From Pedococcus sp. 5OH_020 (GTDB lineage Bacteria; Actinomycetota; Actinomycetes; Actinomycetales; Dermatophilaceae): a stretch of DNA of 64,000 nucleotides. The position numbers and the translations under genes were made by a program. The first letter of the stretch is position 1; each line of letters begins with the position of its first letter. The notes below the pieces were generated by a model. That model had not been told where the DNA came from, made no database searches, and saw only the letters and a program-made list of their open reading frames with translations. The stretch is from assembly GCF_027812955.1 (NCBI RefSeq), contig NZ_JAPYZV010000009.1, positions 1-64,000 on the forward strand, written 5' to 3'. Shown here in pieces: positions 10,408 to 63,662 of the stretch.

Positions 10408-11396
10408 GCCGTCACTGTAGATGATCTTGAGGGCACTCCTGCCTCAGGAGGTCTACTCAGGGTCCGATAGGCATTCCTGAGGTCCGCCACATCCGGAAGC
10501 TCACTGCCTCCTACCGGGTTAGCCACCACTGCCCGCACGTAGTCAAGAAACAAGGTTTGCCATTGCAGCGGTGGGCAGGGATCCGAGGTGCTCCCGTCCA
10601 CGTGCATCAGTGTGGCGCTCTTGTCGGTGACCACCAGCGTCCCATGACTCCCAGTCACGACGACGGAGGGTCCTACGGAGAGCTGAGCATGCGGCGTGGT
10701 GTAACCCACGTCGATTGTCGCGGTGCGACCCTCCCCCGATCCGAGCACGACGAGCGCACGGTCATCTGCCTCGCCTGGCCCGGGGCGGCGAGCCTCGACG
10801 TACTTCGTGGCGAGGCCGGTGGTTCCCACCGCAAGGGAGAAGAGGTCGACAAAGTGGGGACCCAGGTTGCCGAGGCAGCCTGCGCCGAGGACGGACTCCT
10901 TGACAGCCCAGTCGAAGCCCCCGGCGACGTATCGGCTCGAGGGACCGGTCAGATACTGGGCGTGCAGATCGCCCACCGGCCCTAGATTCTTGATCGCAGC
11001 CGGGATCCCGCTGAAGCGGAATACCAGGGGGGTGAAGGCATTCACCCCTGAGCGATCAACCTCCGCGACGAGCTCTTCCAGCTCATGGAGGGATGGCGCC
11101 GCCGGCTTCTCAACCGAGATCGGAATGCCTCGCCCCAAGCACTCCCTGGAATAGTCCAGCATCTCCCAGGGATCGCCAAAAACGAACGCGAGATCAATGC
11201 CTTGGTCGAGCAGCGACGCCCTCGAACCGTATGCCGTTGTCCCGATCGCTCCCGCAAGACGCTCAGCCCTCGCGGGGACTCGGTCCCACACACCGACGAC
11301 GTCCGCTTCAGAGAAACCCGGCAAGTACAGCGGCAGGTGCCAATGCGAGACGCCGAGGACGGCGATCTTTGTACCGGCTGAGCCATGCAAGGTCAT
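10404..11396 (-). CDS. Gfo/Idh/MocA-family oxidoreductase
   Basis: The 330-residue protein has the NAD(P)-dependent Gfo/Idh/MocA layout. The N-terminal Rossmann domain has the EKP motif at residues 96-98 (ISVEKPAAPS), and the C-terminal substrate domain has NLGPHFVDLF. The first glycine loop is atypical (LGVSHWHLPLY instead of GxGxxG). The same oddity occurs in the protein at 26997-27992, so these two are paralogues. Such enzymes oxidise sugar hydroxyls, often at C1 or C3. It lies between an SDR and the IclR regulator in the importer operon, which points to an imported sugar or sugar acid as substrate. Confidence 0.85.
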   Translation of the reverse strand: MTLHGSAGTKIAVLGVSHWHLPLYLPGFSEADVVGVWDRVPARAERLAGAIGTTAYGSRASLLDQGIDLAFVFGDPWEMLDYSRECLGRGIPISVEKPAAPSLHELEELVAEVDRSGVNAFTPLVFRFSGIPAAIKNLGPVGDLHAQYLTGPSSRYVAGGFDWAVKESVLGAGCLGNLGPHFVDLFSLAVGTTGLATKYVEARRPGPGEADDRALVVLGSGEGRTATIDVGYTTPHAQLSVGPSVVVTGSHGTLVVTDKSATLMHVDGSTSDPCPPLQWQTLFLDYVRAVVANPVGGSELPDVADLRNAYRTLSRPPEAGVPSRSSTVTA

Positions 11397-11429
11397 GCGA
11401 GCTGGCGCGGTTTGGTTGTCAGCACCAGG

Positions 11430-12245
11430 TCACGACCCAGTGTGCGCGGCACCAGTGAGATCGATGCTCGTTCCAGTCACGAACGCCGCGTCGTCGGAAC
11501 ACAGGTAGAGGGCCGCCGCGGCAACCTCGCGGGGGTAAGCGAAGCGCCCGAGCGGGATGGCGGCGGCACGCGCTGCGCGGGTCGCTCCTGGCTCTGATCC
11601 CTGCTCCTGCTTGATGTTCTCGAGGCGTTGCCAGAACTCCGTGTCCACCGCCGCCGGACACAGAGCATTGACCCGAATCTGATGTGGAGCAAGCCGTAGC
11701 GCCGAGGACCACGTCAGGCTCAGGACCGCCGCCTTGCTGGCCGCGTAGGGAGCAAAATCCATCCGCCCTTCCTTCGCTGCAATGGAGGCGACGTTGACGA
11801 TGGACCCACCCCGTGCGCCGTCGATCATGTGAGCGGCCGCCTCCTTGAGGCAGAGGAAGGCGCCCAACGCGTTGATCGCGAAGATCCGGTTCCACTCACT
11901 GGCGGGGACCTCCATCAGGGACGCCGTTTCTCCCAGGACCCCTGCCGCATTGATGAGAATGTCGATGCGGCCCGCCTCGCTCACGACCTGACCCACCGCA
12001 CGGGCCACGTCTTCTTCGCGGCTCACGTCAACCGTCAACGACAGGGCGGAGGAACCGCAGGCTTCGGCCGTAGCTGCCGCCCGGTCACCGTCCCGATCCA
12101 GGGCAGCAACGATCGCACCCTGCCCCGCCAACGCAGTGGCAATGCCCGCACCGATGCCCGCCGCGGCACCCGTCACCAGGGCGACCCGGCCGCTCAAACT
12201 ACCTGCCGACACGCCTGTCGCCAATGCTGTGTCCGTGTCAGTCAT
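11430..12245 (-). CDS. short-chain dehydrogenase/reductase
   Basis: The 271-residue SDR has the cofactor motif TGAAAGIGAG, the NAAG element, the catalytic serine in NVASIAAKEG and YAASK as the Tyr-Lys pair. It would oxidise a sugar or sugar-acid hydroxyl with NAD(P). The start MTDTDTA is preferred because GAGAGG lies six bases upstream; an earlier in-frame ATG would overlap the permease gene. Its sequence around the active site (SIAAKEGR) is shared with the SDR at 31403-32164, suggesting two related dehydrogenases in one pathway. The exact substrate is unknown. Confidence 0.87.
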   Translation of the reverse strand: MTDTDTALATGVSAGSLSGRVALVTGAAAGIGAGIATALAGQGAIVAALDRDGDRAAATAEACGSSALSLTVDVSREEDVARAVGQVVSEAGRIDILINAAGVLGETASLMEVPASEWNRIFAINALGAFLCLKEAAAHMIDGARGGSIVNVASIAAKEGRMDFAPYAASKAAVLSLTWSSALRLAPHQIRVNALCPAAVDTEFWQRLENIKQEQGSEPGATRAARAAAIPLGRFAYPREVAAAALYLCSDDAAFVTGTSIDLTGAAHTGS

Positions 12246-12256
12246 CTGATCCTCTC

Positions 12257-13102
12257 TCATCCCTTCATTGCTCCGGTAGCGATACCGCGCACGAACCAGC
12301 GCTGCATCCATAGGAAGAAGATCACGATGGGAAGCATCGACAGCGTGACATAGGCCGTCACGGTGCCCCAGGAGATTCCGATCGCGTTGAACAGTTCGTT
12401 CACCAAGCGCACCTGGACGGACTGCATCTCCGGACTGCGGGTCAACGTCGCAACAACGATGTAGTCGTTCCAGACGAACATGACGCCGAGGACGAAGATG
12501 GCCGCCAGACCAGGTGTGATGAGACGCAGGGTGATCCGGCGAAAGGCCCCGAAGCGATTGCAACCATCGATCAGCGCAGCCTGTTCGAGCTCGTCGGGGA
12601 TGGCCTCGATGTACGTTCTACAGAACCAAAGTGCTTGCGGCAGGAACTGTGCGGCATACACGATGATGACCACCAGGTACGTGTCGACCAGGCCGGTGCG
12701 GTCTGCCATGAACAGCAGCGGCAGAAGCAACGCAACGCCGGGAATCATGTTGGCGACTGCCAGGCCCACCACAAGGCTTGTCTTGCCTTTGAAGGGGAGG
12801 CGAGCGACTGCGTAAGCGGCCGGGAGGGCGATCCCGATGCTCACGAGGGTGGCGCCCACCGCGAAGATCGCCGAGTTGGCGAAGCTCTGCAGGAACGCCG
12901 AGTTCCCTAGTGCAGCCTTGTACGCCTCGAGCGTCACGGTCTTGGGGATGAACTGCGGCGGGAACGTGACCGTCTGATCAGACGGCTTGAAGGACGTCAA
13001 CACCAGCCACAGTACTGGCGCCAACGCGACCACCACGAGAACCGACAGCGCGATGGTCGGCGCCGGTCGTGCCTTGGTGGGATCAGATAGCGGGCCGATC
13101 AC
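12257..13102 (-). CDS. carbohydrate ABC transporter permease (MalG-type)
   Basis: The 281-residue inner-membrane protein has about six hydrophobic segments and the EAA-type coupling loop near IPDELEQAALIDGCNRFGAF. It ends in the typical QRWFVRGIATGAMKG tail of MalG-like (CUT1) permeases. With the MalF-like partner (4-bp overlap) it forms the membrane channel for the binding protein encoded upstream. No ATP-binding subunit is encoded in the window, so it likely uses a shared MsmK/MsiK-type ATPase made elsewhere, as is common in actinobacteria. Confidence 0.92.
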   Translation of the reverse strand: MIGPLSDPTKARPAPTIALSVLVVVALAPVLWLVLTSFKPSDQTVTFPPQFIPKTVTLEAYKAALGNSAFLQSFANSAIFAVGATLVSIGIALPAAYAVARLPFKGKTSLVVGLAVANMIPGVALLLPLLFMADRTGLVDTYLVVIIVYAAQFLPQALWFCRTYIEAIPDELEQAALIDGCNRFGAFRRITLRLITPGLAAIFVLGVMFVWNDYIVVATLTRSPEMQSVQVRLVNELFNAIGISWGTVTAYVTLSMLPIVIFFLWMQRWFVRGIATGAMKG

Positions 13103-51915: not shown

Positions 51916-53016
51916 ATGGTGCCCCCGCTGGCCCGTCTCCCAACCATGCCTGCGTTGCGTGCGATGGTTGCGGTGGGCGCCGCCGTCATCCTGGTTGCTG
52001 TGGCGGCCCTGGGAGCGGCCCCGGCCTGGGTTCCCGAGCCGACACGGCTACCGGCATGCACGACCACCGGGCCGCTGTCCGGTCTGACGGACGGCCAAGC
52101 GGAGAACGCGCGCATCGTCGCAGCCATAGCGGAAGCCAGACTGGGCCCGGACGCCGCACTCATCGCCGTGATGACCGCCCTGACCGAGTCCAACCTACGC
52201 ACCCTGGCCAACCCGCACGACCCGACCGGAACGGCATACCCCCACCAAGGACTCGGCTACGACCACGACTCCCTGGGGCTCTTCCAACAACGGCCAGGCT
52301 GGGGCACAGCCGCCGCCCGCATGGATCCCGTCGCCTCCACCAACCTATTCCTGGATGCGGTCGAGGCCCACCCAGGCTGGCGAACCGAGCCGGCCTGGCA
52401 GGTCGCGCAAGACGTCCAGCAATCCGCCTTCAACGGCATGCCCAGCCTCGGCAACGGCGGCTCCAGCGCCTACGGGGGCAACTACCTAACCCACCAAGCC
52501 CAGGCTCGGGCGATCCTCAACGACATCGGCGTGACGGCGGGCACCGCGACATGCGGCGCCGCGGCGGGCTCGGCGGTCCAGATATCCAATGCTGGATCGT
52601 TCGGACTGCCCCCCGGCTACGGGATCTCGCCCGACACCCCCATTGCCGCCCGCCGTGCCGTGACCTTCGCGCTGGCCCAGCTCGGTAAGCCTTACTTGTG
52701 GGGTGCCACCGGCCCTGACCGCTTCGACTGCTCGGGGCTCACACAGGCGGCCTGGCGGGCAGGGGGTCACCAGCTCGGTCGAACGACGTGGGACCAAGCC
52801 GCCGAGGGCTCCCCCACATCCATCAACACCATACGCCCCGGCGACCTGGTCCTGATTCCCGGATCGGATGGCTCACTCGCCTCACCTACCCACGTAGGCC
52901 TCTACGTGGGGAGCGGGCTGGTCGTTCACGCCCCGAAGAGCGGTGACGTCGTCCGGGTGACACGGCTGACGCGGTTCATCAGCGGCGGTTTGGCGGGCGT
53001 ACGACACATCGCCTGA
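51916..53016 (+). CDS. cell-wall hydrolase, SLT-like plus NlpC/P60
   Basis: The 366-residue protein has an N-terminal membrane or signal segment (ALRAMVAVGAAVILVAVAAL). A lysozyme/transglycosylase-like domain follows (ALIAVMTALTESNLR, SLGLFQQRPGWG). The C-terminal NlpC/P60 domain has catalytic cysteine in RFDCSGLTQ and histidine in PTHVGLYVG. It would open peptidoglycan at the site of the mating channel, the role of VirB1-type enzymes. The start is the first ATG; one ten codons later is as likely. It is the first clear gene of the type IV secretion cluster. Confidence 0.88.
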   Translation: MVPPLARLPTMPALRAMVAVGAAVILVAVAALGAAPAWVPEPTRLPACTTTGPLSGLTDGQAENARIVAAIAEARLGPDAALIAVMTALTESNLRTLANPHDPTGTAYPHQGLGYDHDSLGLFQQRPGWGTAAARMDPVASTNLFLDAVEAHPGWRTEPAWQVAQDVQQSAFNGMPSLGNGGSSAYGGNYLTHQAQARAILNDIGVTAGTATCGAAAGSAVQISNAGSFGLPPGYGISPDTPIAARRAVTFALAQLGKPYLWGATGPDRFDCSGLTQAAWRAGGHQLGRTTWDQAAEGSPTSINTIRPGDLVLIPGSDGSLASPTHVGLYVGSGLVVHAPKSGDVVRVTRLTRFISGGLAGVRHIA

Positions 53017-53099
53017 GCGGCGGCGATTCCCATGGTGCCCCGTAGCCGGGGTTACCCCTACGACGCGGGGCCGGGCTCGCGTAACCGAGAGGAGACCTC

Positions 53100-53384
53100 A
53101 TGGCGCTGCCAGCCATCGACATCCGCCCCAACAGCTCAGGCCTGCCGGGCATTCAGGCACTGTCTGAGATCGTCGGCGCCCTTCTCACCTTCGGCCTCGT
53201 GGCCTCCGTTGCCGGAGTCGCCTTGTCCGCAATCACCTGGGCGATCGGGTCCAACTCCTCCAATCCGCACCTCGCGGGGCGGGGAAAGACCGGCGTCATC
53301 GTGGCGGCGGCCGCGGCCATGTTGATCGGCGCCGCCAACACCCTCGTCACGTTCTTCACCAACGCGGGGGCCTCGATTCGATGA
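53100..53384 (+). CDS. DUF6112-like small membrane protein (pilin-like)
   Basis: The 94-residue protein has two hydrophobic helices (IVGALLTFGLVASVAGVALS and TGVIVAAAAAMLIGAANTLV) joined by a short polar loop. This is the architecture of VirB2/TrbC-like components and of the DUF6112 family found in actinobacterial conjugation clusters. GAGAGGAG precedes the ATG. Its place between the cell-wall hydrolase and the VirB8-like gene agrees with a channel component. Confidence 0.72.
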   Translation: MALPAIDIRPNSSGLPGIQALSEIVGALLTFGLVASVAGVALSAITWAIGSNSSNPHLAGRGKTGVIVAAAAAMLIGAANTLVTFFTNAGASIR

Positions 53385-54199
53385 TGCGCCATCGCCGACA
53401 TGGCGTCACAAGAGCGCAGCGCGGACTCATCATGTTGGCGGTGCCCCTCCTGACCGCTGTGCTGGCGGCCACAATCTGGAGCATTCGTCAGCGGAGCCAC
53501 TCCGACGGCGGAGCCGGCACCGCGCCCAACACGGTCGAGCGGCGCCACCCGGTTGGCCCGTCTTCGCGACCCACGAGAGCGCCCATAGCCGACGCCGACG
53601 TTGAGGCAGACATCGCCCGCCTCAAAGCCATTCGTCCTCCCACCCCAACCAAGCGGACTGCCGGATTGCAAACCCCGGACGAGTCCCGCAACCAACCAGA
53701 CCTCTATGCGCGCGCCTTCGTTCAACGGTTGCTCACCCAGGACTACCGGACCAGCCGCGAGAAGCACTTGGCGTGGGTCCAGACCGAATCCGCACGAACC
53801 GACGAGCCGCTGGTGACCGGTCTGGTTCCCCCAGAGCTGCGCAACCGGGTAGCACTCTTCTCGGTAACAAGCCAAGGGCCCGGGCCGGCACCGATTCCCT
53901 CTCCCGCGGAGTGGGATCGGCTTGGCGCACTGGGCGCTCACACCACCGCGACCGTGCAGCGAGTCACCGAACCTCTCGTCTGGTCGAACGCTGCCGAGGC
54001 AGGCCGAGTCTCGGATCCCGGCGTCACGGCCCGGGAGGTGACCGCCCTCGTCACCCTTCACACCGGCTCGGGTGCGCCTGATACGTCGACCGTCTCGAGC
54101 ATCGCGCTGACCTTGAACCTGGTCGGTCCTCCGACCCGCGACACCTGGGCCTTCGTCGCCGTCATCACGTACCGGGCCGTTCCCATGGGGGCACCGTGA
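53381..54199 (+). CDS. VirB8/TcpC-like transfer protein
   Basis: The 272-residue protein has one N-terminal membrane helix (GLIMLAVPLLTAVLAATIWS), a proline-rich linker, and an external alpha+beta domain from about residue 100 to the end. That layout is typical of VirB8/TcpC assembly proteins. The start overlaps the upstream stop, and its own stop overlaps the GTG of the next gene. The family assignment rests on layout and context, as no strong motif is visible. Confidence 0.6.
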   Translation: MMRHRRHGVTRAQRGLIMLAVPLLTAVLAATIWSIRQRSHSDGGAGTAPNTVERRHPVGPSSRPTRAPIADADVEADIARLKAIRPPTPTKRTAGLQTPDESRNQPDLYARAFVQRLLTQDYRTSREKHLAWVQTESARTDEPLVTGLVPPELRNRVALFSVTSQGPGPAPIPSPAEWDRLGALGAHTTATVQRVTEPLVWSNAAEAGRVSDPGVTAREVTALVTLHTGSGAPDTSTVSSIALTLNLVGPPTRDTWAFVAVITYRAVPMGAP

Positions 54200-55434
54200 G
54201 CTGTACGGGGGTCCTGGCCGTGAGCCCCCTGTGCCAAGCGGCCTCCCTGGTCGGCGACCAGGCAGCAAACGCCGCTGACGGCGCGTTCACCGGCATAGCC
54301 GCGCACTTCACCGTCGCAGCGACGGACGCCACCCAGTGGTTGTGGAAACAGCTCGACACCGCGACCAGCCTTGACCTGGCCTCGCCGCATCTGTTGCGTG
54401 AGATGGCGGCGACCGCCGCGATCGCCGGCGTCCTGTGCCTTGGCCTGTTTCTCATCCAGGTCGTCGCCTCGGTGCTGCGACGTGAACCCGGTGGACTGGC
54501 CCGCGCCGTCACCGGCCTGGTCGTCAGCTTTATCGGTTCCGCGCTTGCCCTCGTCACTACGAGGGCCCTGCTTGGCGCCGTTGATGCCCTCAGTGCGGGT
54601 GTCGTCGCGTTCACCCTTGATACCAACATGGCCGGGATTGGGGCCATGTTCGACTTCACCCAGCTGGCAGGCGTACAGAACCCAGCCGTCGCCCTGCTCT
54701 TTGCGGCGGTCATCCTCGTCGCCGTCGTCATCGTCTGGGCGGCCATGACCGTCCGCAAGATGATGCTTCTCATCGCCGCTGTCCTGGCACCCCTGGCCTT
54801 CGCCGGAGCAACCGCCGACATCACCCGGGCATGGACGCGGCGCTGGATCGAGTTCGTCTGCGCGATGGTCGTCTCCAAGCTGCTGCTGGTGATCATTCTC
54901 AGCATCGGCGTCAGCGTCGTCATGGGGGCCGGCCAGGACGGCGCCGGGGTCACGCAGACCGGCACCCAGCTCGCCGCCGGATCGCTAATCCTCCTCCTAG
55001 GCGGGTTCTCGCCATGGATGGCGATCAAAATGTTCTCCTTCGCCGGTGACACCCTTCACGCCGCCCACCTCACGGCGGCGCAGGCATCCACCGGCGCTCG
55101 CACGGTGGTTGCAGCCCCGCAGAAGGTCGCCGCCCTGCACTGGCAGGTCGGCAAGCTGACCGGCGCATCCAATGCCACTTCCGGCACTCTCCAAGCACCG
55201 CCTCGGCCAACGGCTCAAATCGCCGCGACGACAGAGCCGCCGTCGACGCCGCCAGCCCCCACGGCGCCGCAGGCGCCTGCAGGTGGGGCCGCCATCGACG
55301 GAGCAATCGCTCCAGGAGCGGCCCCGGCACCAACCCAGGCCGAGAGTCCAACTGCGGAGCCGGCGGGCGCTCGCCAACCAGCGAGGGCAGAGCCACCGCA
55401 GCCGCCACGTCGCACCCCACCGAGCCAGCCCTGA
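54196..55434 (+). CDS. VirB6/TrbL-like polytopic membrane protein
   Basis: The 412-residue protein has at least six membrane helices (MAATAAIAGVLCLGLFLIQV, AVALLFAAVILVAVVIVWAA, AMVVSKLLLVIILSIGVSVV). A long proline/alanine-rich cytoplasmic tail from about residue 330 (PPSTPPAPTAPQAPAG) follows. This is the TrbL/VirB6 type of channel protein in actinobacterial T4SS clusters. It starts with GTG overlapping the previous stop. Confidence 0.78.
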   Translation: MSCTGVLAVSPLCQAASLVGDQAANAADGAFTGIAAHFTVAATDATQWLWKQLDTATSLDLASPHLLREMAATAAIAGVLCLGLFLIQVVASVLRREPGGLARAVTGLVVSFIGSALALVTTRALLGAVDALSAGVVAFTLDTNMAGIGAMFDFTQLAGVQNPAVALLFAAVILVAVVIVWAAMTVRKMMLLIAAVLAPLAFAGATADITRAWTRRWIEFVCAMVVSKLLLVIILSIGVSVVMGAGQDGAGVTQTGTQLAAGSLILLLGGFSPWMAIKMFSFAGDTLHAAHLTAAQASTGARTVVAAPQKVAALHWQVGKLTGASNATSGTLQAPPRPTAQIAATTEPPSTPPAPTAPQAPAGGAAIDGAIAPGAAPAPTQAESPTAEPAGARQPARAEPPQPPRRTPPSQP

Positions 55435-55456
55435 CATCGATAAGGCGGAAAGCCAC

Positions 55457-56902
55457 ATGATCGCGGCGTCTCAACCTCTCACCGTTCGGTTTGGCCGCCT
55501 GCCCCGGCGCGGCCTGATTCTCGGCCTATCGACCCCACGGGTGGTGTGCGTCGCTGGCGCGGCCGGGACCGTCATCCCCGCCCTCACGTGGATGGGAATC
55601 GTTGGCGCCCTCATGTCCGCTCCCCTGTGGCTCAGCTTCGTTGCGCTTGCTTTCGCTCCGTGGAACGGCGGCGCTGCGGTTGAGACGCTGCCCACCGCTG
55701 GCCATTTCCTGGCGCGACGTGTCAGGGGCCAGACCCGGTTCCTCGCCCGGCCCGACGCGCCGCGGCCTGCCGGAACGCTTGCCCTCCCAGGCGACGCCTG
55801 CGCGCTGAGGTTTCACATCGACGGCCCGTCGGGAGCGGCGATGGTTCATGACCCTCACGAACAGACCCTCACCGCCGTCGCCCTGATCCAGCACCCGGCA
55901 TACGTACTCTTGTCCCCCGAAGAGCAAGGGCGACGCGTCCACGGCTGGAGCCGCAGCCTCGCCACCCTGGCCAACGGCTCCACCGCAAGGATCCAGGTCC
56001 TTGAGTCCTCCTTGCCAGACTCGGGCCGAACCATCACTGATTGGTGGCAGACCCGGGGGAGCGAGGACAACCACCAGTGGGCTGTGCACCAGTACCAACA
56101 GCTCATGCGGCGCTGCGCCCCCTCGGCGGCCACCCACCGCACCCTGATCGCCATCGCCATCGACCTCAAGGCGGCGGCGCCGGCCATCCGACGATCCGGC
56201 AGGGGGATCACCGGAGCCGCCGCCGTCCTTAGCCGGGAGATGGACGCGCTCGGCTCCACCCTGATCGGGGCCGAGCTGCGGCTCGTCCACTGGCTCGACG
56301 AGACCCAGCTCGCTCGAACCCTCCTGGGGGCCTACGACCCCGGAATCGACCAGCGGCCCACAGGACCGCTGCACTCGTCACTTAGTGCCGCCGGCCCGAT
56401 GGCCATCCACGAGGAGTGGCACCGGCTGCGACACGACACCGGTTATTCATGCGTCCTGTGGATCCGTGAGTGGCCGCGCGTCGAGGTCCCGAGCCACTTC
56501 CTGCACTCCCTCGTCTTTCAGCCCGGCGTCCGACGCACCCTGTCCATCACCGCGACACCAGTCCCCGTCAGCAAGGCCATCCGCGACATCCGCCGCGCCA
56601 AGGTCGAGCACGCCACCGATGCAATGCAACGGGCCAGAATCGGGGCCATCACCGACCTCGCCGACGCGGCCGAGCTCAACGACGTCCTAGACCGAGAACG
56701 CGCTCTCGTTGCGGGCCACGCCGAACTGCGCTTCACCGGCATGGTCACCATCACCGCCACAACCGCCGACGACCTTGAGGCGGCCGTCGCAGCCGTCGAA
56801 CGGGCAGCCATCCAGTGTGGCTGCGAGACCCGGCGACTTCTGGGGCAACAGGCCCAGGCCTTCACAGCCGCAGCACTGCCGCTCGCGCGGCGGGTGAGCT
56901 GA
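55457..56902 (+). CDS. SCO6880-type conjugation protein
   Basis: The 481-residue protein has two N-terminal membrane helices (VCVAGAAGTVIPALTWMGIV, LMSAPLWLSFVALAF). A large soluble region with DWWQTRGSEDNHQWAVHQYQ and VPSHFLHSLVFQPG follows. This matches the family typified by Streptomyces SCO6880, which always precedes a VirB4-like ATPase in such clusters. It may act as the N-terminal half of a split VirB4. GGCGGAAAG precedes the ATG, and the next gene starts one base after the stop codon. Confidence 0.8.
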   Translation: MIAASQPLTVRFGRLPRRGLILGLSTPRVVCVAGAAGTVIPALTWMGIVGALMSAPLWLSFVALAFAPWNGGAAVETLPTAGHFLARRVRGQTRFLARPDAPRPAGTLALPGDACALRFHIDGPSGAAMVHDPHEQTLTAVALIQHPAYVLLSPEEQGRRVHGWSRSLATLANGSTARIQVLESSLPDSGRTITDWWQTRGSEDNHQWAVHQYQQLMRRCAPSAATHRTLIAIAIDLKAAAPAIRRSGRGITGAAAVLSREMDALGSTLIGAELRLVHWLDETQLARTLLGAYDPGIDQRPTGPLHSSLSAAGPMAIHEEWHRLRHDTGYSCVLWIREWPRVEVPSHFLHSLVFQPGVRRTLSITATPVPVSKAIRDIRRAKVEHATDAMQRARIGAITDLADAAELNDVLDRERALVAGHAELRFTGMVTITATTADDLEAAVAAVERAAIQCGCETRRLLGQQAQAFTAAALPLARRVS

Positions 56903-56903
56903 G

Positions 56904-58325
56904 ATGCCCGCCATCGGGTATGCCGCCCGGGCTGCTCTCCGACGCCGGTCGGCCGGTCGCTCGCGCCGCAACCACGACAGCGAACTGCCGGCCCTGCTTC
57001 CGCGCGCTGGAGAAACCGGACCGGATGCTCTTCGGTCACACCGAGCGTTCCGTGTACCCTCGCACCGAGCGACCTCCGATGTGCTGGCTGGCGCCTACCC
57101 GTTCCTCGCGGAGGCAGGCCTTGGCAGCGAAGGCGTCTACGTCGGGCAGGACGCCTGGTCCGGAGGTGGGTTCTGCTTCGACCCCTGGGAGCTCTATCGC
57201 CAGGGCGTTCTCACCAACCCGAACTGCCTCCTCGCAGGCGTCGTTGGCAAAGGCAAGTCATTCCTCGCCAAGTCTTTAGCCACCCGATCCATCGCCTTTG
57301 GCAAACGCGTCTACGTGCCTGGCGACCCCAAGGGTGAATGGTCCAACGTTGCCGACGCGGTCGGAGGGGCTGCCATCCGCCTCGGCCCGGGATCGAGCAA
57401 CCGCCTGAACCCCTTGGATCCGGGCCCCAAACCAGCCAACCTCACCGACGCCGACTGGCAAGGGTTGCTCAGGTCTCGACGGCGCGCGCTGCTCGGATCC
57501 ATGTCACAAGCCGCCCTTGGACGGCCACTGCATCCGATCGAGCATACGAGCTTGGACATTGCGCTCGCCTGCGCTTGCAACGTGGCCGCCGTCCCGGTCC
57601 TGACTTACGTTGTCGATCACCTCTTCGCACCGAGAACACCGCACGGTCTCGGCATGAGCAGCGGCCAGCTCGCCGAGGCCTCGAGGGATGTCGGGCACGC
57701 CCTGCGCCGGCTCGTCGCCGGGGACCTCGCCGGCCTCTTCGATGGACCATCCACCGTCAAGTTCGACCCGAACTTGCCCATGATCTCCCTAGACCTGTCC
57801 CGTATCCACGGCTCGGACGAGCTCATGGCCATGGTGATGACGTGCGCATCGGCATGGATGGAGGCGGCGCTCGCCCAGCCGGACGGCGGCCAAAGGTGGG
57901 TCATCTATGACGAGGCGTGGCGGCTCATGCGCCAACCCGCACTCCTCGCCCGCATGCAGTCGCAATGGAAGCTTTCCCGCGGCCTGGGCATCGCCAACCT
58001 GCTCATCGTCCACCGGCTCTCAGACCTCGACGCCGTCGGTGAAGCCGGCTCAGAAGCCCGGGCTCTGGCACGCGGCCTGTTGGCCGACTGCTCGACCCGC
58101 ATCATCTACCACCAGGAGGCCTCCGAGATCCACTCAACAGCCTCTCTACTAGCACTCAGCAGCGCGGAGGCACATCAGATCGCCGAACTACAACGCGGCG
58201 AAGGACTCTGGCAGGTCACCAGGCGCTCCTTCGTCGTCAGGCATCAGGCGACCGACGACGAGACTGGGGTTTTCAATACCAGCCTCCGCATGCAGCCACA
58301 GAGCGAATGCGTGGATGCTCAGTGA
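56904..58325 (+). CDS. VirB4-like conjugation ATPase
   Basis: The 473-residue ATPase has Walker A GVVGKGKSFLAKS near residue 115, Walker B RWVIYDEAWRLM, and a following RGLGIANLLIVHRLSD segment typical of VirB4/TraC motors. It would power pilus or channel assembly. The length fits the C-terminal half of VirB4, with the SCO6880-type protein as the missing half. It is the last gene of the cluster in view; no VirD4 coupling ATPase follows, which suggests loss or displacement. Confidence 0.85.
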   Translation: MPAIGYAARAALRRRSAGRSRRNHDSELPALLPRAGETGPDALRSHRAFRVPSHRATSDVLAGAYPFLAEAGLGSEGVYVGQDAWSGGGFCFDPWELYRQGVLTNPNCLLAGVVGKGKSFLAKSLATRSIAFGKRVYVPGDPKGEWSNVADAVGGAAIRLGPGSSNRLNPLDPGPKPANLTDADWQGLLRSRRRALLGSMSQAALGRPLHPIEHTSLDIALACACNVAAVPVLTYVVDHLFAPRTPHGLGMSSGQLAEASRDVGHALRRLVAGDLAGLFDGPSTVKFDPNLPMISLDLSRIHGSDELMAMVMTCASAWMEAALAQPDGGQRWVIYDEAWRLMRQPALLARMQSQWKLSRGLGIANLLIVHRLSDLDAVGEAGSEARALARGLLADCSTRIIYHQEASEIHSTASLLALSSAEAHQIAELQRGEGLWQVTRRSFVVRHQATDDETGVFNTSLRMQPQSECVDAQ

Positions 58326-59010: not shown

Positions 59011-59279
59011 AGCGACCTCGCGGCTCTGCGTTACCGCCCGCCGTCGTGGCAGTGGTGTGCAGATGGTCCACCCTTGAAGCCGCTGCTTTTCGCCCACTAT
59101 GGGCCACCCTCCTCGCCGCACCTGGTGACGCAGGAGCCCAAGAGCAGACCTCGATGTGTTTTGCGCGAGGCCGGCCCCGAGCCCACCGTGGTGTTGCTGG
59201 AGCTGGCCAGGACCGCTGAACCTAGTCGAATGTCAGTACGACCTCGGCTCAGGCCGGGTAGCCGACTGGCTCGGCATGC

Positions 59280-61223
59280 TCAAGCCGGTGCGACCGGGTA
59301 GGGCACGTATCGGTGTCCGGGAATGACGTCTGAGTGCGGCAGTGCCATGAGGTGCGCGCCACAACCGGCAATGGTGAGGTGCCTCGCGATAAACGTGAGC
59401 AGGCCGCCACCAAGGGCGGCTAGGTCGGCTGCGGACCCGTGGAAGGTCGGTGCCGAACATCCGCGCGTCGGGACGAACTCGTCTCCGGGTCCCGGCTCTT
59501 CCCAGAAGTACCGGTAGCGCTCCAGAGTACTGTCGGCGCGCACCGTGTCGCGCAGGTGGTGGTCCATGTCGGTCATGGAGGCAACGCAATCTGGCGGGTT
59601 GACTATGGCGTAGCCGAGGGTGCCACTACGCGCATCGGTGGCTACCTGCGCGATGAACGCCTTCCGCTGAGGATTTTTTGCGATGATGTCGAGTTGCTTT
59701 GCGACCTTCAGACTGATGGTCGCGTCGATGACGAGATAGGCGCTGAGCGCGACCTGGCTCAGTTCGGACGTGCTGAGCCGACCATGCACATCTACCTGAA
59801 CAGTGTCACTAATGGCCTTCAGGCGGTCACGCAGAGCCGAGACTTTGCTGGCCCCGATGTCGTCCTCGACGTAGTCCTGTCGGACGAGCAGTCCGCCGGT
59901 GACGCGCCCGTAGTCGCTGATGACGACTCGGTGCGCTCCGGCACGCACGACGAACTCAGCGATCCACGAGCCAAGACCTCCGCAACCGAGGATGACCACG
60001 GTCCTGTCGTTCAGGGCAGCGACTGGTCGGCCGGCGTCACGACGAGTGGTGACCGCTGCGCGCTCATCGGACACAAAGCACCATTCAATGGGTGCGGCCA
60101 TGTTGATGCGTTCCAGATCGTAGGGGATGAGGCTCGTGGACTTGTTGCGCACGAGCTGTCGGAGGTCGTCTGCGAGTTCGGGGGGCAGTTGAAGTCCCAG
60201 CAGGTGGCGAGGTCCCCCCGCCGGGTGCGGGACGGCCAAGATGAGCCTCTGCGGGGTCCCGACAGGGTTGCGACACGCACTGGCGGCAAGCGCGGTGAAC
60301 AACGCAGCATCTGGCGTCGTCTCGTATGGCGGTGGCTCTGCCTCGGGATAGTGACCTGCCAACCACTGCGGTGACGTCCAGCCTCGGCCTGCGACGAATG
60401 CCCGGTCGGCGTAGCAGGGCGGATGCGCCGTAGGCCTCGGGCGGGCTGCGGACCGGAATGCCAGTCCTAGAGGGCGGGGCTGTCGAATGAGTGCGAGAAG
60501 CTGGCCTAGTGAGTCGTGACCGGCTCCCAGCGGCATGTCGGAGTCGGCGAAGAAGATGGGTACATGCGTGGGCTCTGGATCGCGCTGCACCTCGGAGTCC
60601 AGATCGAGCCGCTGCCCAGTCCGCCGACTGAGGCGCGCCGTGGCAACTCTGGCCCTGGGCTCGGGTAGGTGCCTGACGACAATACTCAGGGAGCCAGGAG
60701 TGACGTGCGGTACGCCTCCGACGGCGTGAAAGAGAGCAGTGTCGGGGTTGAAGTCGTTCTGGGAGGCCTTCCCAATCCAGTCCCACAGACGGTTGAGCAC
60801 ACCGTTCTTATCGTTGACGCCCACATCCGGGTCCCACTCGCGGGACTCGTCGAGATAGAGGCAGAGGTAGAAGCCCGACAGGACGTGGGGCGTGCCGATG
60901 AACCGCCCGTGCTCCAGGATCACAGTTGGTGGCTGGTCGTCGGTCGGCCCAATGAAGAGGAGGAAGTCCTCAACTGCCTTGAAACGCAGGCCGTCAGCTG
61001 TGGGCGTGGGGAGGTCGGCCGTGTGGAGGGCGAAGCGAACCATGACGTTCCCAGCGTCGTCCCTCGTCTGAGCACCGACAGTCAGGAGGTCAGGCTGGCC
61101 TTTGGCCTGGGCGCGCAGGTCTGCCAGCACTCGCCGTTGCCACTTGGTGAGCGCTGGTCGCGATGGCTCTCTTCGAGTCACCCAGCCTTGCCGCTTCGAC
61201 TGGAAGAAGATCCCGACCTGCAC
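59280..61223 (-). CDS. cap2: CBASS Cap2: E2-E1 fusion (ubiquitin-conjugation-like)
   Basis: Counting from the GTG at 61223 (647 residues), residues 20 to about 170 form an E2-like domain. Its catalytic cysteine is near 121 in HVLSGFYLCLYLD, followed by NRLWDWIGKA. Residues about 405-640 form a ThiF/E1 domain with the nucleotide loop ILGCGGLGSW, the aspartate in VVISDYGRV and a probable catalytic cysteine near 589 in PTRGCSAPTF. In type II CBASS this protein joins the C terminus of the CD-NTase to a target and so primes it. The start is uncertain: GTG at 61235 or 61181 are alternatives, and all overlap the CD-NTase gene by about 90-150 bases. Confidence 0.88.
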   Translation of the reverse strand: MQVGIFFQSKRQGWVTRREPSRPALTKWQRRVLADLRAQAKGQPDLLTVGAQTRDDAGNVMVRFALHTADLPTPTADGLRFKAVEDFLLFIGPTDDQPPTVILEHGRFIGTPHVLSGFYLCLYLDESREWDPDVGVNDKNGVLNRLWDWIGKASQNDFNPDTALFHAVGGVPHVTPGSLSIVVRHLPEPRARVATARLSRRTGQRLDLDSEVQRDPEPTHVPIFFADSDMPLGAGHDSLGQLLALIRQPRPLGLAFRSAARPRPTAHPPCYADRAFVAGRGWTSPQWLAGHYPEAEPPPYETTPDAALFTALAASACRNPVGTPQRLILAVPHPAGGPRHLLGLQLPPELADDLRQLVRNKSTSLIPYDLERINMAAPIEWCFVSDERAAVTTRRDAGRPVAALNDRTVVILGCGGLGSWIAEFVVRAGAHRVVISDYGRVTGGLLVRQDYVEDDIGASKVSALRDRLKAISDTVQVDVHGRLSTSELSQVALSAYLVIDATISLKVAKQLDIIAKNPQRKAFIAQVATDARSGTLGYAIVNPPDCVASMTDMDHHLRDTVRADSTLERYRYFWEEPGPGDEFVPTRGCSAPTFHGSAADLAALGGGLLTFIARHLTIAGCGAHLMALPHSDVIPGHRYVPYPVAPA

Positions 61224-62181
61224 CCCCGGCGGCACCTGCTCCGATGGCGGGAAACTTGGACCCTTTGGTGTCGGAGTCGGCTGCCGCGAAGCCGGTTCCG
61301 AAGAGTTCGCGCCAGAGTGCCAGGCTTTCGTCCTCATCGGTCTGCACGAGGGCTGCGGAGATCTTGGTGTCGAGCTTCTGGATCTCCGTGCGGAATTGCT
61401 GGTACTTAGTCTCGGTCCAGCGGTGGGTGAAGACGGCGCTCTCCCCAGCCTCGACCTCAGGGAGAGTTTCGTTCTCGCGGACCCACTCGGCGAGGTCCGA
61501 CACGATGCGACCCAGCGCGACAGGGACGTTGGCGTAGCTCTTGGCATCAGCCAGCACGTTCTCTGGCTTGATCGTAATTCCAACGACGGTTGTCAGGATG
61601 ATGGAGACCGTGTCCTTGTACCAACCGCGGTGGTCGCGCAGGTACTTCAATAGCCGAATGACCCGACGCATATTTCCGTCGGCGAGGTCGTCCTTCTCTT
61701 TCATCCACGTGGTGAACTCGTCCGAGTTGCTCGCTTCCCACTCGTCTGTCTCGGCGTTGATAATGTGCTCTCCCTCATCGGCCCGATTCACGTAGGGCAC
61801 AACGTCGACGTGCATGTCGTTCGCATAGGAGACCCGGACACAGCGGTTCTTAGCCTCTACTGGCTTGTCCATCTCGCCATAAACAGGATCTTTATCGAGA
61901 GCTTGGAAGACCGCATTGTTGTACTGGGCAGGGGACCAACCTGGCACCTCTTCGAGTTCGAGCATGAAGTCTGCGTCGAACTCAAGCTCCTTCGGCGGAT
62001 TGATGATCGTTCGCTGCGCCCATGAGCCCTGGCGCTTCTTGCTGAGGACGCTCGCGTCAGGTTTCGCGGCCTTAATGGCGGCATAGATCTTGTCGACGCG
62101 GTCGGCGAGGCTGTCGAGTTTCCCATCGGGAAGGTTGACTGTGTTCTCCAGCAGGGCGTTGAAGTCAGTCACGTGTTCCAT
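61090..62181 (-). CDS. CBASS CD-NTase (cyclic oligonucleotide synthase)
   Basis: The 363-residue nucleotidyltransferase has the CD-NTase active site: GSWAQ at 52-56, the metal-binding pair Asp69-x-Asp71 in LEFDADFMLE and the third acid near Asp126 in MHVDVVPYV. On phage infection it would make a cyclic di- or trinucleotide that activates the phospholipase. AAGGGGG lies upstream of the ATG, and the start overlaps the effector gene by 13 bases. The last 50 residues are a low-complexity Ala/Arg/Gly-rich tail (AIGAGAAGGAGRDLL..., ending GQRPA) encoded over the Cap2 start. This tail would be the Cap2 conjugation site. The nucleotide product cannot be deduced. Confidence 0.9.
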   Translation of the reverse strand: MEHVTDFNALLENTVNLPDGKLDSLADRVDKIYAAIKAAKPDASVLSKKRQGSWAQRTIINPPKELEFDADFMLELEEVPGWSPAQYNNAVFQALDKDPVYGEMDKPVEAKNRCVRVSYANDMHVDVVPYVNRADEGEHIINAETDEWEASNSDEFTTWMKEKDDLADGNMRRVIRLLKYLRDHRGWYKDTVSIILTTVVGITIKPENVLADAKSYANVPVALGRIVSDLAEWVRENETLPEVEAGESAVFTHRWTETKYQQFRTEIQKLDTKISAALVQTDEDESLALWRELFGTGFAAADSDTKGSKFPAIGAGAAGGAGRDLLPVEAARLGDSKRAIATSAHQVATASAGRPARPGQRPA

Positions 62182-63215
62182 AAGGAGCCCCCTTCGGGCG
62201 TTTGGTCGGAGCGTTGGTCGCTGTGCGGCGTGGGCGGCGGCAGCGGGGTAAAGGGCGGGGCCGCGTGGCCGGCGAACTTCGCGGTGAACTCAGGGGCCAA
62301 GTTCCGGCTGACAGTGGACGCGTACCCCCTGACCGATTCGGCCCTGATCCGATCAAGGGCGAACTTGCCGGGTGGCACGGGCGCGTCGAAGCGCACGAAG
62401 TTCTCAAACCCGACCAGGTGCATGGCCGTACCCATGCCACCTCGGCTGCTGGCGTTGAGAATCACGCCAGCGGCCTTCGGTCCCCAGCGGAGGAGGCCGG
62501 CCGTCTGCAACCGGTCGACGTTGTCAGTGAAGGGTTCCATCGTCCCCACGTTCAACACGCGCATGGCGTCCAGCGGAACTCCGAGCATGCTGCGTGCCTC
62601 ACCGATAGCCAGCACCGAGGGGTTATTGGCCCAGACCCCTCCGTCGATGAGCGGCGCGTCGTGGACACGGGCCGCTCGGAAGTACGTGGGAGCCGCAGTC
62701 GTCGCCAGAGCGACGTCGACCATCTTGATACGCCAGTCCCTGGTAAGGCGATCGCCGTGACGGGTCTTGAAGATGTGCACCTCGCCGCGCTGCAGATCCC
62801 ACGACGGGACAACCAAGCGCACGCAGCTGTCGCCCAGCGTTCGGTCCCCAAAAACTTCGACCAGCACGTCCCGCAGCACGTCGCTGTTGTAGGCGGGGCG
62901 TCGAAGGCGACTCAGCCGTGCGCGATGCTGCAACCGGCTGGGGAAAACCCGGTCGACAAGGTCACCGAAGTGCTCGGCGATCTCCTTCGGCCTCAGACCT
63001 GCACCGAGTCCGAGCGCCACGATGCCACCGGCCGAGGTCCCGGCGACCATATCGAAGTGGTCTGTGACCCTGACGCCCAAATCGTCCTCGAGGTGCGCGA
63101 GGACGTGGGCGGCGAACAAGGCCTTCGCCCCTCCGCCGTCTAGCGCCAGAATCTGGAAACGGTCACCTTCGAAAGGGTCAGAAGTCGGGCCGTGCGTGGC
63201 ATATGAGCCAGTCAT
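62169..63215 (-). CDS. capV: CBASS effector CapV, patatin-like phospholipase
   Basis: The 348-residue protein has the full patatin catalytic set: the DGGGAKAL oxyanion loop, nucleophile Ser61 in AGTSAGGIV and Asp191 in LIDGGVWANNP. As a CapV-type effector it would be switched on by the cyclic nucleotide and break down the membrane, killing the infected cell. The start MTGSYATHG is preferred because GGGAG is six bases upstream; an earlier ATG at 63284 gives a longer product. It is the first gene of the three-gene operon. Confidence 0.9.
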   Translation of the reverse strand: MTGSYATHGPTSDPFEGDRFQILALDGGGAKALFAAHVLAHLEDDLGVRVTDHFDMVAGTSAGGIVALGLGAGLRPKEIAEHFGDLVDRVFPSRLQHRARLSRLRRPAYNSDVLRDVLVEVFGDRTLGDSCVRLVVPSWDLQRGEVHIFKTRHGDRLTRDWRIKMVDVALATTAAPTYFRAARVHDAPLIDGGVWANNPSVLAIGEARSMLGVPLDAMRVLNVGTMEPFTDNVDRLQTAGLLRWGPKAAGVILNASSRGGMGTAMHLVGFENFVRFDAPVPPGKFALDRIRAESVRGYASTVSRNLAPEFTAKFAGHAAPPFTPLPPPTPHSDQRSDQTPEGGSLWNT

Positions 63216-63485
63216 CTTGTTCTCCCGATCCCTTTCGGTTGTCTGCTTGGCAGCGTAGGGACGTCCGCCGACAACGTTGGCCACGAGCAGCCCGTGCGCC
63301 TTGTCGGGGAGGACCCCTTCGTCTGTGCCATGACGCCCCGCTCCTGTGATACGACCTCCGGTCAGCGCCGCGGCTACCCGCGCCTCCGTTCCAGAGTCGC
63401 ATCCGCGAACGACGATGCGCGGTTACCCGCGCTTCGTCGGCGTGTCGCGGCTAGCCGCGCGCGCAGGTGGCGACATGCTCTTGGC

Positions 63486-63662
63486 ATGGCTGAGACCAGC
63501 AACAAGCGAAGCCGCCGAGGTACTGACGTCCGCCGGCGTCATCACCAGGTGGGTGTTCGGTTGCTTCCCGAGGAATTGGAGAAGCTGCGGGGCCTAGCGG
63601 AGCGCTATGGCGTCTCACCCGCCGAGGTGCTCCGACGAGCGCTCCTGACCGATTCCCTCTAA
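63486..63662 (+). CDS. small ribbon-helix-helix protein
   Basis: The 58-residue protein has a basic N terminus (SNKRSRRGTDVRRRHH) and a ribbon-helix-helix domain: strand QVGVRLLPEE, helices LEKLRGLAERYG and SPAEVLRRALLT. Such proteins are plasmid repressors, antitoxins or MobC-like accessory factors. The ATG at 63486 is the start that gives only this domain. It is divergent from the CBASS operon and could regulate it or belong to the adjacent backbone. Confidence 0.65.
   Translation: MAETSNKRSRRGTDVRRRHHQVGVRLLPEELEKLRGLAERYGVSPAEVLRRALLTDSL

What the first reader, a model, noticed from the sequence alone, without database searches (positions are those of the whole stretch)
59280..63215. Type II-like CBASS operon without a visible Cap3 protease
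The order CapV (patatin), CD-NTase and Cap2 (E2-E1 fusion) is a cyclic-oligonucleotide anti-phage system. Canonical type II systems also carry Cap3, a JAB-type isopeptidase that reverses conjugation. The 269 bases between Cap2 and the cupin gene hold no JAB motif (HxH...SxxD), and no such gene is seen upstream. The unusually long CD-NTase/Cap2 overlap and the 50-residue Ala/Arg/Gly-rich CD-NTase tail, which would be the conjugation site, add to the oddity.
Basis: partly seen in the sequence, partly recalled or inferred. Interest (0 to 1): 0.85.

Follow-up and report, generated by a model that had tools for sequence, protein, structure and literature searches.

The report
Phage-defence operon without Cap3 protease
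This is a three-gene bacterial anti-phage operon (a killer lipase, a signal-making enzyme and a ubiquitin-like ligase) that lacks the usual 'undo' protease, as do the related operons examined, while the odd long tail of the signal enzyme is only a broken reading frame.

Summary
The CapV / CD-NTase / Cap2 operon is real, and so is the missing Cap3, but neither is special to this window. The whole genome has no JAB match. None of 72 related loci with cyclase plus Cap2 shows a JAB domain in the flanks held (55 of 72 have 2 kb or more on both sides). DNA similarity to the nearest relative covers only 59251-63273, so the three-gene cassette is the unit. The 'tail' falls: in all 72 loci the cyclase ends in glycine (69 GRAG; 61 overlap Cap2 by 4 nt). 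In the window that ending, SRSGKAG-stop, lies in another reading frame, its TGA overlapping the Cap2 GTG. The Ala/Arg/Gly-rich tail and the 92-nt overlap thus come from a net frame change within about 61,210-61,245: a mutation or an assembly error. Cap2 keeps both cysteines and a Cap2 fold. Of wider interest: a mostly actinobacterial lineage conserves Cap2 and the cyclase glycine without Cap3, whereas PMC10097602 (passages) reports the conserved Gly/Ala only in Cap2+Cap3 operons.

The parts
62169..63215 (-). capV: patatin-like phospholipase, CBASS effector (348 aa)
   Evidence: Pfam Patatin 7e-29; NCBIfam NF041079 'CBASS cGAMP-activated phospholipase' 250.8 bits, over its cut-off of 200; GTSAG and DGG motifs visible in the translation (motif names recalled)
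61090..62181 (-). CD-NTase open reading frame as it stands (363 aa), with frame-changed tail
   Evidence: SMODS 6.7e-27, DncV-like NTFase 6.4e-12; PADLOC cyclase PDLC00787 matches residues 1-320 of a 333-position model; QGSW and acidic residues invariant with 17 relatives
61090..61240 (-). Part of the CD-NTase frame that has no counterpart in relatives (the 'Ala/Arg/Gly-rich tail'); upper limit approximate
   Evidence: 17 of 17 aligned relatives end in GRAG instead; 72 of 72 loci of the larger set, which overlaps with the 17, end in G[RK][ASV]G
61178..61225 (-). Relatives' conjugation end (GCRSGSSSSRSGKAG, then TGA) in a frame other than that of the CD-NTase; TGA overlaps the Cap2 GTG by 4 nt
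   Evidence: same ending SSSSRSGKAG in frame in L086
59280..61181 (-). cap2: E2-wing-E1 fusion (633 aa from GTG 61181)
60861..60863 (-). Codon of Cap2 Cys107, putative E2 catalytic cysteine
   Evidence: invariant in 39 of 39 aligned Cap2, the window's included; role assigned by analogy
59457..59459 (-). Codon of Cap2 Cys575, putative E1 catalytic cysteine (RGCSxPTFHGSAAD)
   Evidence: invariant in 39 of 39 aligned Cap2, the window's included; role assigned by analogy
59251..63273 (-). Whole cassette as a mobile or inherited unit
   Evidence: single blastn match of 81.5% between Nocardioides L086 (17.9 kb) and C32:1-100000, with these ends; single 74.8% match to Geodermatophilus L087 over 59298-63215

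Best explanation
A type II-like CBASS of a lineage that does not carry Cap3 beside it. Inferred working of the intact form: the CD-NTase (probably a cGAMP-type synthase, because CapV belongs to the cGAMP-activated family) is activated through its C terminus by Cap2 (adenylation by E1, thioester to E1 then E2 cysteine) and joined by its last glycine to a target, which primes it. On infection it makes the cyclic nucleotide, CapV is activated, cuts membrane lipids and kills the cell. With no Cap3 the conjugates would be long-lived, removed only by turnover or dilution. In this particular copy the cyclase reading frame changes within about 61,210-61,245, so the deposited protein lacks the glycine end. 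As written, Cap2 could not conjugate it and only basal cyclase activity would remain. Whether the change is a mutation in the organism or an error in the assembly cannot be told here. Shown: gene identities, intact catalytic residues of cyclase and Cap2, lack of JAB, frame change, conserved glycine in relatives. Inferred: nucleotide made, priming, fate of conjugates.
For: Operon and families. Cap2 fold and cysteines. No JAB in own genome: (PF14464 rings in 8 of 14 control genomes, PF01398 in 2 of 14). No JAB near CBASS in the 17 relatives with Cap2 given: ten carry one JAB, always on another contig or at least 1.7 Mb away (places of CBASS). No JAB in 72 of 72 loci with cyclase plus Cap2, while 6 of 6 JAB-bearing controls ring even with a model built without them. 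The 17 and the 72 overlap. Cassette limits. Frame change. Only CapV and SAVED effectors recur widely beside the pair in 43 dereplicated loci.
Against: 17 of the 72 loci have under 2 kb on one side, so a distant or separate Cap3 could be missed there. One of the 72, L124, gives a chance-level JAB match (E 0.058, 13.7 bits, first 46 or so of 128 model positions, no metal motif); it is absent with the second model. Of the 40 of 80 genomes scanned whole, 31 hold a JAB elsewhere, mostly one copy, which could act in trans; the window's genome has none. Conjugation itself has not been shown for this lineage. The tree does not tell whether Cap3 was lost or never present.
Confidence: 0.82

Rival explanations
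1. Canonical type II CBASS whose Cap3 acts in trans from elsewhere in the genome.
For: 31 of 40 relatives' genomes scanned (40 of the 80 loci) carry at least one JAB protein somewhere, as do 10 of 17 genomes or records.
Against: The window's own genome has no PF14464 or PF01398 match; 9 of the 40 genomes have none; 26 of the 34 JAB matches score 100-113 bits, like one common housekeeping family (my reading).
Confidence: 0.08
2. The long tail is real and useful: the cyclase of this strain has gained a new C terminus, or a programmed frameshift makes both forms.
For: The frame is open for the whole 363 codons.
Against: 72 of 72 loci and 17 of 17 aligned relatives (overlapping sets), including the two nearest at 83% and 78% cyclase identity, need no frameshift and end in glycine; most of the tail DNA is the Cap2 start read in another frame; nothing conserved suggests recoding.
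Confidence: 0.04
3. A degenerate, decaying CBASS in which Cap3 has been lost recently and the cyclase tail has followed.
For: One gene of three carries a frame change.
Against: Absence of Cap3 is shared by the lineage, and the two nearest relatives share only the same cassette with the window, with an intact cyclase end; CapV and Cap2 are open along their length.
Confidence: 0.06

Closest known systems
Type II CBASS with CapV, CD-NTase, Cap2 and Cap3 (E. coli TW11681, V. cholerae, as in PMC10097602)
   Same: CapV-type effector, DncV-like cyclase, E2-E1 Cap2; relatives keep the C-terminal glycine that Cap2 uses.
   Different: No Cap3; cyclase end is GRAG/GKAG; here the end is out of frame.
CBASS parts of PADLOC models PDLC00787 (cyclase) and PDLC00857 (E1-E2)
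   Same: Best matches of both proteins; the parts are thus already in a defence library.
   Different: The library gives no statement on Cap3 in this clade that I could see.
6A-MBL anti-phage system (NCBIfam NF058523 cap2_3 and NF058524 MBL-fold enzyme)
   Same: Best NCBIfam match of the window's Cap2, over the E1 half, 128 bits against a cut-off of 320; plasmid kin such as L078 align along E2 and E1.
   Different: Its Cap2 has a JAB domain fused on (L078) and its partner is an MBL-fold enzyme, not a cyclase (partner tested for L078 only).
Alphaproteobacterial plasmid CBASS with Cap3 (Roseibium L084, Ruegeria L085)
   Same: Cyclase, Cap2 and an effector (SAVED) in one operon.
   Different: They carry Mov34/MPN/PAD-1 = Prok-JAB beside Cap2.
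Type II 'short' CBASS with an E2 only (mentioned in PMC11153139, Discussion)
   Same: Cyclase conjugation with fewer accessory parts.
   Different: Here a full E1-E2 Cap2 is present.

Membership tests
CBASS (any type) | CD-NTase with intact nucleotidyltransferase core | tested here: met
CBASS (any type) | Adjacent cyclic-nucleotide-activated effector | tested here: met
   CapV, NF041079 over cut-off
CBASS (any type) | Phage defence by abortive infection | not testable with these tools
   needs infection assays
Type II CBASS | Cap2 E1-E2 fusion with both catalytic cysteines | tested here: met
   the E2 half has no Pfam E2 match and rests on the PADLOC model and the 7to3 structural match
Type II CBASS | Cap3 JAB isopeptidase in the operon | tested here: not met
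Type II CBASS | Cyclase ends in C-terminal Gly or Ala fit for conjugation | tested here: inconclusive
   72 of 72 relatives meet it. The window ORF itself ends in Ala (...GQRPA), but out of register with the relatives; the fitting end lies in another frame.
Cap3-less GRAG lineage (this report) | Cassette, Cap2 clade and cyclase end shared | tested here: met
   tree places the window with L086/L087 (97/89 and 100/100); blastn over the cassette; end shared only in another frame
6A-MBL system | Cap2_3 over NCBIfam cut-off and MBL-fold enzyme | tested here: not met
   128 of 320 bits; partner is a CD-NTase
Type II short CBASS | E2 without E1 | tested here: not met
   ThiF/E1 domain present

The most novel reading that the evidence does not exclude
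A widespread, mostly actinobacterial lineage of type II-like CBASS runs cyclase conjugation as a one-way reaction: a full E1-E2 Cap2 and a near-invariant C-terminal GRAG are kept by selection, with no dedicated deconjugase. Cap3-driven release would then not be a general step of activation, and pre-primed, non-reset cyclase would be a workable immune state.
Probability: 0.6. Interest if true: 0.62.

Novelty: new variant of a known kind. Interest (0 to 1): 0.45.

Why it matters
The role of Cap3 is disputed. The Discussion of PMC11153139 (read) recounts systems where it is needed and others where it is not, and supposes that deconjugation is necessary for activation in B. cereus. PMC10097602 (passages read) says that the conserved C-terminal Gly or Ala is found only in operons with Cap2 and Cap3, and that Cap3 makes conjugation reversible; [quoted passage not shown] A lineage of 72 loci that conserves the glycine and Cap2 but shows no Cap3 is an exception to the first statement. 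It is also a natural test of whether conjugation primes the cyclase or merely parks it. For this window the practical lesson is that the cyclase annotation should not be trusted at its 3' end.

Tried and rejected
Single-sequence scan of genome contigs with the cyclase found no relative; the Cap2 alignment scan did. Scan of viral contigs with the Cap2 alignment: none. Phaeobacter H13 was fetched as a Cap3 control but shows neither Cap2 nor Cap3, so it is no control. I first took the Cap2-JAB fusions L078, L082 and L083 for CBASS relatives; NCBIfam shows that L078 is a 6A-MBL system, so they serve as JAB controls only. A start of the cyclase at GTG 62172 was considered; the ATG at 62181 fits the annotated start of R. 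fascians better (row L012), so it is kept. In one search the window row begins at that GTG and stops at 61184. Four cyclase hits without Cap2 (L024, L025, L026, L046) were left out of the 17. Apparent recurring families beside the pair were checked: every cluster in six or more of 43 loci lies on CapV, SAVED, cyclase or Cap2 DNA (37 of 40 segments in one cluster, all in the others). One five-locus cluster is only partly so (3 of 5 segments, on cyclase DNA) and looks like second cyclases; the rest occur in five loci or fewer. Programmed frameshifting was rejected because no relative needs it. The tree does not settle whether JAB was lost: the JAB label needs two changes, one origin is not ruled out, and the tool warns of long branches. 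Eight of 80 loci were left out of the 72 (no cyclase found upstream): L150, L151, L153, L155, L156, L160, L163, L164; L163 and L164 show a JAB in one frame with a divergent Cap2. Chance-level JAB matches in the 72: L124 by profile (E 0.058), and L127, L128, L106 by tblastn (E 0.015-0.056, 31-67 residues). The tool kept 80 of 92 matches. Whole-genome JAB search was given 40 of the 80 loci. Papers 10.1038/s41564-020-0777-y, 10.1038/s41586-022-05647-4 and 10.1093/nar/gkv1267 are not held. Paper searches listed no paper whose title or abstract start describes a Cap3-less E1-E2 lineage; this says little, because key papers are not held and most listed papers were not opened.
Full report

The missing Cap3. 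The whole genome of the window (4.43 Mb, 32 contigs) has no match to Prok-JAB or JAB; the same searches ring in 8 and 2 of 14 control genomes. A motif scan of C32:54001-76000 finds no JAMM-like motif, while it finds one in each of the two Cap2-JAB fusions given to it, L078 and L082. The four plasmid relatives whose annotation I read carry cyclase, ThiF protein and SAVED, one also CapV, but no JAB gene. A Prok-JAB search of the 17 relatives with Cap2 (13 genomes, 4 plasmid records) finds ten with a single JAB, in every case on another contig or at least 1.7 Mb from the CBASS locus. A scan of genome contigs with the Cap2 alignment gave 92 relatives, 80 kept; by their titles all but one (L117, a Planctomycetaceae MAG) look actinobacterial. 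This set overlaps with the 17. Of the 80, 72 have a cyclase directly upstream of Cap2. A local JAB profile finds nothing above chance in any of the 72 (one match at E 0.058, L124, lacks the metal motif), and finds JAB domains in frame with divergent Cap2 in two of the other eight (L163, L164). Six of six JAB-bearing controls ring, also when the profile is built without them. Of the 72 loci, 55 have at least 2 kb on both sides; 17 do not.

Nothing replaces it. In 43 dereplicated loci the only gene families that recur widely beside the pair are the effectors: SAVED in 26 and CapV in 21 (checked). In the 72 loci CapV alone is found in 33, SAVED alone in 24, both in 9, neither in 6, all six with a short flank on at least one side. 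DNA similarity between the window's contig (1-100,000) and the nearest relative, L086 from Nocardioides, is one block of 81.5% that covers 59251-63273, and with L087 from Geodermatophilus one block of 74.8% over 59298-63215. The unit is therefore the three-gene cassette.

The odd tail. Seventeen aligned relatives end in GRAG. Of the 72 loci, 69 end in GRAG, one in GKAG, one in GKVG and one in GRSG; 61 of 72 overlap the Cap2 start by four nucleotides. In the window the cyclase frame agrees with L086 and L087 down to about 61,225-61,245 and then diverges. From 61225 to 61181 a different frame of the same DNA reads GCRSGSSSSRSGKAG and stops at a TGA that overlaps the GTG start of Cap2 by four nucleotides, just as in most relatives. 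Aligned to the last 16 residues of L086 this frame scores 53, the two others 21 and 22; for L087 the figures are 38, 22 and 23. A simple model gives about 4.5e-5 for [RK]AG-stop at that exact place. The 92-nt overlap and the 'Ala/Arg/Gly-rich tail' are thus the result of a net frame change within about 61,210-61,245. Intact copies exist (L086, L087). Whether the change is in the organism or only in the assembly cannot be decided without reads.

How it most likely works. By analogy with type II systems (PMC10097602, passages read; PMC11153139, passages and Discussion read), Cap2 would activate the last glycine of the cyclase and join it to a target, raising nucleotide synthesis on infection; CapV then destroys the membrane. 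Deleting the glycine abolished conjugation in E. coli (PMC10097602). So this copy, as deposited, would be left with unconjugated cyclase and at best partial protection (inference). In its relatives conjugation should work but has no dedicated reversal. Of 40 relatives' genomes searched (of 80), 31 do hold a JAB protein elsewhere, so an in-trans deconjugase is not excluded for them; for the window's genome it is not found.

Where it belongs. It meets the tests for CBASS and for a Cap2-bearing system, and fails the Cap3 test, so I file it as a Cap3-less type II-like variant and not as a canonical type II system. In the Cap2 tree the window sits with L086 and L087 (97/89 and 100/100) among 44 JAB-less rows, itself included; the place of the six JAB-bearing rows is not well resolved. 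The nearest JAB-bearing kin, Cap2-JAB fusions on actinobacterial plasmids, belong at least in one case to the 6A-MBL system and not to CBASS.

What is new. PMC10097602 states that the conserved C-terminal Gly or Ala of the cyclase is found only in operons with Cap2 and Cap3; the passage compares these with minimal operons and with operons lacking the E2 domain. The lineage described here keeps the glycine in 72 of 72 loci without Cap3. PADLOC already holds models for its cyclase and Cap2, so the parts are catalogued. The listings show no paper on such a lineage, but three key papers were not held. Other papers seen: PMC10419184 and PMC12355090 (passages), PMC10449767 (part 1 of 2 of the text).

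Setting. The cassette lies in what looks like a conjugative element: TrbL/VirB6-like and AAA_10 ATPase genes to the left (both under their Pfam cut-offs), a NikA-like ribbon-helix-helix gene at 63294-63662 (also under its cut-off), and a TraG/TraD-type coupling protein at C32:70609-72360. The relative on Arthrobacter plasmid pJ349-116 also sits beside conjugation genes.

Noticed in passing
window 51916-58325 and 63294-63662; L018 (C32:60001-80000) 10609-12357: Genes of a conjugative element flank the CBASS cassette: NlpC/P60, TrbL/VirB6-like, AAA_10 ATPase, NikA-like RHH, TraG/TraD coupling protein.
   Followed up: partly
L078, L079, L080, L082, L083, L084, L085: Beside JAB-bearing Cap2 systems (and L079, where Cap2 runs off the record) the gene before Cap2 ends in GFG followed by zero to two residues (R, AA, AE, GK or none), as if the JAB protein might trim it to the glycine; the Cap3-less lineage ends exactly at glycine.
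   Followed up: no
L012, L043, L044: Three loci carry both CapV and a SAVED effector around one cyclase-Cap2 pair; 9 of 72 do so in the larger set.
   Followed up: partly
L023:11819-12760: A second, shorter cyclase lies convergent to the Cap2 of the first system.
   Followed up: no
L095, L097-L101, L145: Seven mycobacterial loci carry cyclases with the same last 20 residues and the same identity to the window (43.293%), as if the cassette had spread recently.
   Followed up: no
G416:C1:1676-3529 (L057): An 862-residue open frame matches the E1-E2 model in two pieces (153 and 99 bits) in another actinomycete; possibly another Cap2 fusion.
   Followed up: no
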